Shown piece after piece: positions 42,945-45,544 of a stretch of DNA of 64,000 nucleotides (position 1 is the stretch's first letter; each line of letters starts with the position of its first letter). The translations under genes were made by a program, and so were the position numbers. The DNA comes from Lamellibrachia satsuma. Its lineage: Eukaryota > Annelida > Polychaeta > Sabellida > Siboglinidae. The stretch covers positions 1,245,001 through 1,309,000 of the forward strand of contig BSQZ01000028.1 of NCBI GenBank assembly GCA_033239005.1, in the 5' to 3' direction. Below the pieces are notes generated by a model. The model ran no database searches. It worked only from the letters and a program-made list of their open reading frames with translations, and was not told the DNA's origin.

Positions 42945-45544
42945 TGCATATATTTATATATATGAATTATGTACATAAATATTATGGTTATAACACTATA
43001 CGTTTTTATTACATAGCCTCAATGAAGCATCATTATAGCTAGCAAGTTAAGTGTCCTTATGGTGTGTTTTTGAAAAAAATTCACTTGCATCTTAAATATT
43101 ATTTTAAAAGTACCCGTTAGTGCTCTACAAATAATGTGTTTCATGTGAAAATTTTTCTGAATATTTCCATTGTCCATTTCGTGCCATGCAGAGTAAATTA
43201 AATATTACTTTGTTGTTTTTAATAACAATAATGATATGACCCCTTTGTGTGTTGAATCGCCTTCGTGGTTCTGATGCAACTGTAGTATTATTAGTGCTGT
43301 TTGTAGCAATTCTGATCACTAAAACACAATATCTGACAATCGTGCCATTTGTACACCTAAAGTGATGTAGTACGGACCATTAATAATCAGAATTCTAACA
43401 ATGTTCAACCGAATGGGAGTTCAATGGACTATAAGGTAGCAGCAGACCAAACGCATTACTGTCAGTGTCTACTCCATCTTAAGCCATTTTGTGTGTCAAG
43501 TGTGTGACATAATGAAGGATACTCTCAAACCTGTAATGTTCACTGAAATAGTCCAACGGTTCTTTCAGATCCTGTCGCATACAGTGAGGTATCGATGCGC
43601 AACAATGCTGCTATCCTGGATTATTGTCGCACATCAATGTCAGCTTTGTCTGGCTCTACAGCAGGCATCTTGGGTTTGACGGGACTCTACGGCTTTGCGT
43701 TTTATTTTATTACTGCGTTCATATTATCGGTATGTTTGTTATTTTCATTGTTTTTGTACATAAGATGATAAGACGTACATTAAAAGTATAGTTGTTGTTT
43801 TTTTCGTCAAGCATATTTTAATGGTAATGGTTAACAATAAATTATTCATATGACCCATTTATTTACTTTATACAATAACTTATTTTATATTAAATTTGGT
43901 ACAAGTTTAAAAACAAATGCAGTTTCAACTGTACTTTTATATCAACTTCAGAATGATAATGATTCTATTGGATAAGAGAATCCTTCAAGACAAACTCAAC
44001 ACGTTTGCAACTCACTTAGCACTAAGTAACAATAACCTTAAATTCAACTGAGTGTTCTTCACACGTTTGTTGCGCTTTGTCTCTAATAGCTGGCCCTATC
44101 TAGATTAAACAATTATAGTCAGGAAATTTAGATATTCATTAAGCTAGTTCTGTCTTATGAAAGTATTTTTACATGCAGGGACAAAGTGGGTGGGCGTATG
44201 AGACCTTTACCCTTGCACCGGTAAAATAAACAATAGATAGTAAGTTATTTTATATGGTAAATATCATACTTGTATATTGTGCTTGAACTGTGCATGATAT
44301 CTAATTTTGTCAATAATATATAGGTGTGCTTACTTACAAGTACCAGTCATTCAATACACCAAGTACAAACACGGGAATACTTGAAACGAATCCTGCATGA
44401 AAGCGTTATCCTGTCACGTTGAAGGTCATATTTCTGTATGAAGGTGATGTTGGTACTGAAAGCTGGACACGACTGGCACAAGTTTGTGAGGTCACGAAAC
44501 ATGTTCTTCACGGCGGGTCTCTTTGGTGGATTATTTGTATCCTTTATGAACCGAAGAAGTTCTCCATTCACGATTGCTGATTGTGTAATGTTTGTTTAGA
44601 AATGCATGGATTGCATATCAACTTTGAAGTTTTAGATTCCAGCACATAATTTTTGCAAATTATCATTGGGCCATGTTTTCCGGGTAACTATTGTACATTG
44701 ATCTACTTATATATTGACTTTTTTTACTATTAATAAACTTGAAGACATTTTAACATTCAATTACTTCACAAAGAATTTGAAAGGCAATTTGAAATAGTTA
44801 AGCTATCCATGAGAAAACATGTGTATTAGTTAATTTATGTCATTGCTGTATACATTCAGACATTGATTGATTAGACTTGTTGTGTTGTCTTCTTGATTTG
44901 TATTGCAGATCTCTCTGTCTTTGTTCTCACTGTGTTCCTTGACTTTCACTTTCAGACATATATTTTATTCTGGACGTATCCTTTACTGCTGAGAATCAAA
45001 GATATTTCATCCCACTTTGCAATATACATTGATAACGTTCTTATTGCTGGGTGTTAAGAATATGCTCAAATGATGCCATGAACGCCTGATCCCGATAAAC
45101 TCTGTTTACAACTTTTCATGAATATGCAGAATGGTAAGGCTGATATTCGTAAAGAGATAACAGTCAAATTATATTAAAGTTAACTTATTGAGGATTTCCA
45201 AAAAGTTATTATGCATTGTGAACCTGATGTATTACCATTTGACGATAGAGGAATCCAAATTGTTTCATAATAATTATGATCTATTTTCAAATGTAATATT
45301 CAACCTTCATGGTTGCAAATCAAATTAACTTGTTATTGTCATAAGACAATTAGTATTGTCAAGGACCAGTATCGACGCCAGCCTCACCCCAGACTTCAGG
45401 GATAAAGAGGAGAGCAACCACAATTACTTGAGTTTTACGTAAGAAAGTTTACGTAGATTTGCAGTCGGTGTAACTTTGAAATTACTTTGTTGTTGCCTTA
45501 ACAATGCCTTCAGATTTCTCTACGGCATGGTGCATGTGTATTAG
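39652..45544 (+). CDS. EMC6: ER membrane protein complex subunit 6, 5 exons
   Basis: Exons: 39652-39703, 43569-43729, 44444-44536, 44956-44975, 45514-45544. Phases agree and the product is 118 residues, near the usual 110. Exon 1 encodes MATTGATIALKGRKVRK. Exon 2 carries the family core NNAAILDYCRTSMSALSGST, AGILGLTGLYGFAFYF (first transmembrane segments). Exon 3 reads LKAGHDWHKF then FTAGLFGGLF. Exon 4 is only 20 nt (TYILFWT). Exon 5 ends FLYGMVHVY-stop, as in animal EMC6. Known role: a small transmembrane subunit of the EMC insertase, which places transmembrane helices into the ER membrane. Introns 3 and 4 are U12-type. Intron 1 (3.9 kb) is full of transposons. Exon 1 is the least certain, placed by phase, ATG and GTAATT donor; the rest is firm. 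Confidence 0.93.
40228..40800 (+). mobile_element. Second LINE 3' end inserted, in opposite orientation, into the first
   Basis: Plus-strand frames read LEMVQRRSTHHIH, MIYKVINKLVDVNPAALLGP, GNHSCRRHQAKLQIPHSQTD and LWNSVPVNASSATSLPSF, the post-RT end of a different LINE. It ends in a short AAAG-type tail (AAAGAAAGAAAGAAAA, about 40790-40805). The host LINE resumes immediately on both sides. Confidence 0.75.
41166..41364. mobile_element. 199-bp hAT-like MITE with perfect 8-bp target duplication
   Basis: Starts CAGGGTTGTTTG and ends CAAACCTG, with AT-rich inverted internal repeats (ATTTAAATCATTGATTTAAA). It is flanked by CTCCTAGG at 41158-41165 and again at 41365-41372. It interrupts the LINE between MEKDLG and VHIDKS. 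Confidence 0.88.
41894..42618. mobile_element. 725-bp hAT-like MITE with perfect 8-bp target duplication
   Basis: Starts CAGGAATGTGTTAATTTC and ends AATTGCCCCATGCCTG. Both ends are dense in TTAATTTAATTAA. ATAAGAAG flanks it at 41886-41893 and 42619-42626. It interrupts the LINE exactly between TSYI and IDKGYP. No transposase ORF. A middle part (about 41990-42180) is related to 46925-47130 inside another hAT element. Confidence 0.9.
42715..42752 (+). repeat. tRNA-like A-box fragment, possible SINE head
   Basis: GAGCCGTGGTCTAATGGCTAG followed by AGCATCCACTTTGCC resembles the 5' half of a tRNA with an RNA polymerase III A box (TGGTCTAATGG). No anticodon stem, B box or acceptor 3' end follows, so this is not a tRNA gene. 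A tRNA-derived SINE piece is the likely source. Confidence 0.4.
42909..42945. repeat. Short (TA)n microsatellite
   Basis: About 37 bp TA within EMC6 intron 1. A short sequence near 43250 (GAATCGCCTTCGTGGTTCTG) is related to the dispersed repeat at 7680-7935. Confidence 0.9.
44537..44955 (+). other. U12-type (minor spliceosome) intron, EMC6 intron 3
   Basis: 5' splice site GTATCCTTTA matches the U12 consensus (A/G)TATCCTTT. The branch site TTCCTTGAC at 44935-44943 lies 12 nt before the end of the intron, inside the narrow range used by U12 introns. The 3' end is AG. Confidence 0.88.
44956..44975 (+). CDS. EMC6: 20-nt coding micro-exon of EMC6
   Basis: ACATATATTTTATTCTGGAC encodes TYILFW plus two bases of the next Thr, aligning with TYVLFWT of other animals. 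It is bounded by TTTCAG on the left and GTATCCTTTA on the right. Without it the frame and a transmembrane segment are lost. Confidence 0.9.
44976..45513 (+). other. U12-type intron, EMC6 intron 4
   Basis: 5' splice site GTATCCTTTA again matches perfectly. TTGCCTTAAC at 45493-45502 fits the branch consensus TTCCTTAAC, 11 nt before the intron end. It contains the dispersed repeat also seen at 26800-26890. Confidence 0.87.

What the first reader, a model, noticed from the sequence alone, without database searches (positions are those of the whole stretch)
44537..45513. A 20-nt coding micro-exon of EMC6 lies between two consecutive U12-type introns
Both donors are GTATCCTTTA and both branch sites (TTCCTTGAC, TTGCCTTAAC) sit 11-12 nt from the AG. 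U12 introns are well under 1% of animal introns, and two in a row separated by only 20 nt is rare. The minor spliceosome would have to recognise this tiny exon across itself or splice the introns one after the other. As far as I recall, the vertebrate EMC6 coding sequence has no introns.
Basis: partly seen in the sequence, partly recalled or inferred. Interest (0 to 1): 0.82.

Follow-up and report, generated by a model that had tools for sequence, protein, structure and literature searches.

The report
Tiny exon between two minor-class introns
In a deep-sea tubeworm, the gene for the membrane-protein helper EMC6 carries a 20-letter coding exon squeezed between two introns of the rare minor (U12) class, and traces of the same layout in other invertebrates suggest that it is real and old, though no RNA was seen.

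Summary
The window is from a Lamellibrachia tubeworm genome (inferred). Five exons joined by script give a 118-aa EMC6 identical to the protein deposited for L. satsuma. The last two introns (44537-44955, 44976-45513) have the two best U12-like donors of 8,136 GT sites in the window; their acceptors rank 2nd and 3rd of 6,524 AG sites for a U12 branch site. The 20-nt exon 44956-44975 encodes TYILFWT, kept without a gap in 120 of 120 listed homologues. The introns are not copies of each other. Elsewhere, 6 of 15 listed proteins read exon B then VS[F/L] and 4 of 63 read LFWT then YP, the reading of a phase-2 U12 donor; one is a mayfly protein. So the intron positions, probably as U12 introns, occur outside this genus, but some insect-like fragments lack them. 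No RNA evidence was available; the genome's minor-spliceosome RNAs and a genome-wide count went untested because the genome server failed. Best reading: an old constitutive exon whose two minor introns are removed one after the other. New variant of a known kind.

The parts
39652..39703 (+). EMC6 coding exon 1 (MATTGATIALKGRKVRK + first base of D)
   Evidence: tblastn with P0001; joined CDS identical to P0001
39704..43568 (+). EMC6 intron 1, 3,865 nt, U2-like donor GTAATT
   Evidence: donor score -13.3 bits
43569..43729 (+). EMC6 coding exon 2
43730..44443 (+). EMC6 intron 2, 714 nt, phase 0, U2-like donor GTATGT
   Evidence: donor score -4.5 bits
44444..44536 (+). EMC6 coding exon 3 ('exon B', ends GGLF)
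44537..44955 (+). EMC6 intron 3, 419 nt, phase 0, U12-type
   Evidence: donor +15.5 bits, branch-site score 13.86
44537..44546 (+). U12 donor GTATCCTTTA of intron 3
44935..44943 (+). U12 branch site TTCCTTGAC of intron 3, branch A at 44942
44956..44975 (+). 20-nt coding exon 4 (TYILFW + AC)
   Evidence: residues conserved in 120 of 120 listed homologues
44976..45513 (+). EMC6 intron 4, 538 nt, phase 2, U12-type
   Evidence: donor +15.5 bits, branch-site score 12.45
44976..44985 (+). U12 donor GTATCCTTTA of intron 4
45494..45502 (+). U12 branch site TGCCTTAAC of intron 4, branch A at 45501
45514..45544 (+). EMC6 coding exon 5 with stop (FLYGMVHVY*)

Best explanation
The last two introns of this tubeworm EMC6 gene are both U12-type, and the 20-nt exon between them is a constitutive coding exon for the conserved C-terminal membrane segment. 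Shown here: the sequence signals, the exact reading frame, one copy found in the genome, conserved residues, and readings in other organisms that fit introns at the same two positions. Inferred: each intron is bound by its own U11/U12 di-snRNP that pairs donor and branch site across the intron (419 and 538 nt); one intron is spliced first, and the tiny exon is then part of a normal-sized exon for the second reaction. Also inferred: the layout is ancestral at least in lophotrochozoans (intron 4 perhaps in protostomes), and EMC6 output depends on the minor spliceosome twice, because skipping the exon or keeping either intron breaks the end of the protein.
For: Five exons, 357 nt, translate to the 118 residues of P0001, EMC6 of L. 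satsuma. P0001 is on a 254,024-bp contig, the window's contig runs past 1.3 Mb, so another assembly gave the same protein. Pfam EMC6 80.2 bits against cut-off 23.3; a solved EMC6 chain aligns to the last residue. U12 signals: top 2 of 8,136 donors, ranks 2 and 3 of 6,524 acceptors. One EMC6 in the genome, both matches inside the window. Six of 15 listed proteins read exon B then VSF (2) or VSL (4); P0122 and P0125 share 30 residues of exon B with P0077, which reads straight on to TYILFWTFIYGMVHVY, P0123 differs by one. Four of 63 listed proteins read LFWT then YP; GTATCC in that phase gives WTYP, GTAAGT and GTGAGT give a stop. P0135 and P0181 have Q right before T, and SLT (compatible with TCCTTRAC) 3 and 4 residues before the exon. 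Skipping or retention replaces FLYGMVHVY.
Against: No transcript was seen; P0001 may be a homology-guided prediction. VS after exon B is also how GTAAGT or GTGAGT reads, so the type of intron 3 elsewhere rests on the third residue, F or L in 6 of 6. Both probes carried typed VSF or YPL/YPF endings, which favours such hits. P0185 has SFVLFWT and no readable U12 branch peptide. Of the 63 proteins, 57 read straight through the exon; many of these are spliced or annotated forms, but fragments such as P0130, P0131, P0142, P0146 and P0147 suggest that both introns are missing in some lineages; the mayfly model lacks intron 3. A pyrimidine-rich stretch precedes the intron-3 branch site, so a U2-type acceptor is not excluded there. 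The U11 and U6atac searches of this genome did not complete. The order of splicing is pure inference.
Confidence: 0.8

Rival explanations
1. The tiny exon is recognised across itself: U12 on the intron-3 branch site and U11 on the intron-4 donor, in one di-snRNP or two touching ones, define the exon before either intron is paired.
For: Branch A to next donor is 34 nt, both sites are near-consensus. Cross-exon contacts of the minor spliceosome are described (PMC8034651, passages). A hairpin that brackets both sites is a weak lead.
Against: Described contacts join minor to major sites over ordinary exons. The introns are short enough for intron-wise pairing. The hairpin is not better than 12 of 400 random places in the window and its conservation is unknown.
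Confidence: 0.2
2. A regulated switch: exon skipping or retention of one minor intron is used to lower or change EMC6.
For: Each faulty product changes the protein end; intron-3 retention puts a stop at 44597, 378 nt before the last junction, which could trigger decay (inference). Minor-intron retention varies between tissues (PMC6717393, passage).
Against: 120 of 120 listed EMC6 proteins keep the segment; no isoform without it was seen in the lists; no RNA data.
Confidence: 0.12
3. One or both introns are in fact removed by the major spliceosome, and the U12 look is a relic or chance.
For: GT-AG ends; pyrimidine-rich stretch near the intron-3 3' end; U12-to-U2 conversion is documented (PMC2831892, PMC10639083, passages).
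Against: Donor scores +15.5 bits on the U12 side, best two of 8,136, with matching branch sites.
Confidence: 0.04
4. Artefact: wrong assembly, pseudogene or recent duplication of one intron.
For: The donors share ten identical bases.
Against: Introns 3 and 4 are no more alike than shuffles (score 23 against mean 22.3, 120 of 300 shuffles as high); frame intact; protein equal to that of another assembly; single copy.
Confidence: 0.02

Closest known systems
U12-type (minor) GT-AG spliceosomal introns
   Same: Donor GTATCCTTT, branch TTCCTTRAC-like, branch A 12-13 nt before the intron end
   Different: Two in a row with a 20-nt exon between them; in human 661 of 714 minor-intron genes have a single one (from the numbers of PMC6717393)
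Genes with several minor introns
   Same: Clustering of U12 introns within genes in all 21 genomes tested by PMC7367187 (passages)
   Different: I met no report of adjacent minor introns around a tiny exon in searches (listings, with passages of PMC8329584, PMC13149111 and PMC4667643 only). The one hit for adjacent or neighboring U12 (PMC8329584) speaks of U12 beside U2 sites
Regulated microexons
   Same: Very short exon
   Different: 20 nt, frame-shifting if skipped, encodes a conserved membrane segment; the reviewed ones are typically 3-15 nt, tend to be in frame, neural and alternative (PMC13149111, passages)
Nested U12/U2 twintrons (prospero) and U11-binding splicing enhancers
   Same: Two sets of splice signals close together that involve U11/U12
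   Different: Here two minor introns lie side by side; nothing nested, overlapping or competing was seen (PMC8329584, passages)

Membership tests
U12-type intron (both introns) | 5' splice site matching RTATCCTTT | tested here: met
   exact in both; best two of 8,136 GT sites
U12-type intron (both introns) | TTCCTTRAC-like branch site close to the 3' end | tested here: met
   TTCCTTGAC 13 nt and TGCCTTAAC 12 nt from the end; ranks 2 and 3 of 6,524 AG sites
U12-type intron (both introns) | no marked polypyrimidine tract | tested here: inconclusive
   read by eye: intron 3 has TCTCTCTGTCTTTGTTCTC upstream of its branch site, intron 4 nothing comparable
U12-type intron (both introns) | removed by the minor spliceosome | not testable with these tools
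   needs RNA and U12 or U6atac inhibition
U12-type intron (both introns) | host genome encodes U11, U12, U4atac and U6atac snRNAs | not tested
   U11 and U6atac requests not answered; U12 and U4atac not asked; no Rfam family reaches its cut-off in the window itself
EMC6 | Pfam PF07019 above cut-off and full-length match to a solved EMC6 | tested here: met
   80.2 bits against 23.3; residues 16-118 on 6ww7_F 8-110
Regulated microexon | 3-15 nt (definition in PMC13149111) | tested here: not met
Regulated microexon | keeps the reading frame | tested here: not met
   20 nt; skipping shifts the frame
Regulated microexon | alternative inclusion | not testable with these tools
   no RNA data

The most novel reading that the evidence does not exclude
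An ancient module, at least as old as the protostome ancestor, in which a 20-nt exon is held between two minor introns and recognised by minor-spliceosome particles across the exon itself (branch point to next donor 34 nt), possibly helped by a hairpin, so that making EMC6 needs the minor spliceosome twice and reports on its activity.
Probability: 0.12. Interest if true: 0.85.

Novelty: new variant of a known kind. Interest (0 to 1): 0.62.

Why it matters
How minor introns are paired and ordered is mostly discussed for one minor intron among major ones. A 20-nt exon with minor splice sites on both sides is a clean natural test: either minor spliceosomes work intron by intron in sequence, or a di-snRNP can define an exon far too short for usual exon definition. 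The gene is short and found once, so a minigene could settle it. The traces in other lophotrochozoans and a mayfly offer a series for gain, loss or conversion at two neighbouring sites.

Tried and rejected
DNA of relatives was sought in viral contigs with the protein, three alignments and one DNA pattern and in genome contigs twice; nothing was confirmed. The first alignment query spent two scans on patterns that lie on or across the exon junctions. Duplication of introns 3 and 4 was rejected (mononucleotide shuffles). The Rfam scan of the window gave no family at cut-off. A hairpin around the exon is kept as a weak lead only; the flank limits were set after seeing the fold. Naming the genes at 54-62 kb failed. 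P0179 (LTVFLDFHMHTYILF) resembles the intron-3 end but has no CAG reading before the exon and was left out as unclear; P0186 is unrelated; P0185 is counted but weak.

Ten of the 187 held proteins lack the motif counted: the six VS fragments P0121-P0126, P0132, P0179, P0186, and P0157, which has too few residues before the motif.

Full report
What is there. The window contains a complete EMC6 coding region on the + strand. Joining exons by script (39652-39703, 43569-43729, 44444-44536, 44956-44975, 45514-45544) gives 357 nt and a 118-aa protein identical at every residue to P0001, deposited as ER membrane protein complex subunit 6 of Lamellibrachia satsuma. The species of the window is therefore inferred: a Lamellibrachia tubeworm, an annelid. 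The genome has 735,336,914 bases in 279 contigs, and P0001 matches it only here, in two exons. P0001 lies on a 254,024-bp contig whereas the window's contig is longer than 1.3 Mb, so P0001 comes from another assembly; how it was predicted is not known to me.

The two introns. The donors at 44537 and 44976 are both GTATCCTTTA. With approximate matrices recalled from published logos, their U12-over-U2 score is +15.5 bits, against -13.3 and -4.5 for EMC6 introns 1 and 2; they are the top two of 8,136 GT sites on both strands. The branch sites TTCCTTGAC (A at 44942, 13 nt from the end) and TGCCTTAAC (A at 45501, 12 nt) put their acceptors 2nd and 3rd of 6,524 AG sites; the first is a site on the other strand. 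The junctions are fixed by the protein, and no shift of up to 2 nt gives the same mRNA. The motif itself is not over-represented: 28 near-matches in the window against 39.8 in shuffles, 774 copies of the 10-mer in the genome against 1,809 of the reversed control. The evidence is the placement.

The exon. 44956-44975 encodes TYILFW and two bases of T. Of the 120 proteins listed (of 572 found), 120 hold TY[I/V]L-x-WT without a gap: 116 with F at x, 4 with C, V or S. In a 14-sequence alignment columns 103-110 are invariant except I/V at 105. The segment aligns with a solved EMC6 chain. Skipping the exon shifts the frame, keeping intron 3 ends the protein after ...GGLFVSFMNRRSSPFTIADCVMFV, keeping intron 4 gives ...LFWTYPLLLRIKDISSHFAIYIDNVLIAGC; each loses FLYGMVHVY.

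Traces elsewhere. DNA of relatives was out of reach, so I used the fact that gene callers read into introns. In phase 0 GTATCCTTN reads VSF or VSL; in phase 2 after TGG AC it reads WTYP. A profile of exon B ending in VSF (16 rows) listed 15 proteins: 6 end exon B with GGLF and go on VSF (2) or VSL (4), 9 are EMC6 proteins without that reading. P0121 shares 28 of 31 exon-B residues with the window. P0122 and P0125 share 30 residues of exon B with P0077, a 94-aa EMC6 that reads straight on, and P0123 differs by one, so a spliced or intron-free form is held as well. GTAAGT and GTGAGT also read VS, so the intron type rests on the third residue. A second profile around the tiny exon listed 63 proteins: 57 read straight through as EMC6, 4 have LFWT followed by YP, 2 are unclear or unrelated. 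The four are P0173 (Ephemera danica, a mayfly, GGLFTYILFWTYPFQ: intron 3 absent and intron 4 U12-like in that partial model), P0135 (YGSLTFLQ|TYVLFWT|YPFL), P0181 (FSLTPMLQ|TYILFWT|YPFA) and P0185 (TVFLCFMQ|SFVLFWT|YPLA). SLT is a reading of TCCTTRAC. From rough residue frequencies, SLT or FL[N/D] at 2-6 residues has a chance of about 0.004 per fragment, and the string Q-exon-YP is expected about 0.0045 times in the whole database (0.024 with S and F allowed). Over the 187 held proteins, 177 match the motif: 173 continue as EMC6, 4 continue YP, none ends at WT. The probes favoured such endings. Fragments such as P0130, P0131, P0142, P0146 and P0147 read straight through in what look like genomic pieces, so both introns seem to be missing in some lineages, insect-like ones among them (inference).

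How it probably works. The introns are 419 and 538 nt, the exon 20 nt, and the intron-3 branch A lies 34 nt before the intron-4 donor. My preferred reading is intron-wise recognition by two di-snRNPs and sequential splicing; cross-exon recognition is the chief rival. A hairpin that encloses branch site, exon and donor folds better than 198 of 200 shuffles and its flanks pair better than 999 of 1000 shuffles, but 12 of 400 random places in the window pair as well, and a sliding scan gave only z -1.5 at 44900 (10th of 57 windows). I do not build on it.

What is known. Minor introns are about 0.5% of introns (PMC8329584, passages). Human has 770 in 714 genes, 50 genes with two and 3 with three (PMC6717393, section 5). 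They cluster within genes in all 21 genomes tested and are biased against phase 0 (PMC7367187, passages); intron 3 here is phase 0. Losses and conversions are common in invertebrates, and two annelids lost most minor introns in different ways (PMC2831892 and PMC10639083, passages). On EMC6 as a minor-intron gene I found nothing: 0 papers with EMC6 + intron + minor spliceosome, 0 EMC6 mentions in the 20 listed of 165 papers, one unopened chicken paper for EMC6 + intron retention, 0 for EMC6 + intronless. On adjacent minor introns around a tiny exon: listings, of which I opened passages of PMC8329584, PMC13149111 and PMC4667643 only. Most subscription papers and all supplementary tables lay outside, so minor-intron databases may already list it.

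Verdict. Real and well supported by sequence, likely old, not shown at the RNA level. A new variant of a known kind.

Noticed in passing
window 44893-45032: Flanks could form 16-bp and 14-bp helices that enclose the intron-3 branch site, the 20-nt exon and the intron-4 donor; weak statistics.
   Followed up: partly
window 45359-45421 and 26802-26888: Part of EMC6 intron 4 matches a stretch 18 kb away on the other strand (82% over 56 nt, 93% over 27 nt), probably a short interspersed repeat.
   Followed up: no
window 41403-41903, minus: Reverse-transcriptase fragment (Pfam RVT_1, 64.8 bits) antisense inside EMC6 intron 1.
   Followed up: no
window 13550-13894, minus: Astacin metallopeptidase exon (Pfam, 85.5 bits).
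   Followed up: no
window 46000-46200: Best predicted RNA folds of the 57 windows scanned (z -4.9 and -4.1), just after EMC6.
   Followed up: no
G000:C6:1254143-1255670 and G000:C2:12258644-12271916: GTATCCTTTA recurs ten times at multiples of 22 bases on C6 (satellite-like) and four times at 3.5-4.9 kb steps on one strand of C2, perhaps duplicated genes with the same donor.
   Followed up: no
P0179 (46-aa fragment, unnamed source): Ends LTVFLDFHMHTYILF, 13 of 15 residues as in the intron-3 end plus tiny exon of the window, but with no CAG reading before the exon; unexplained.
   Followed up: no
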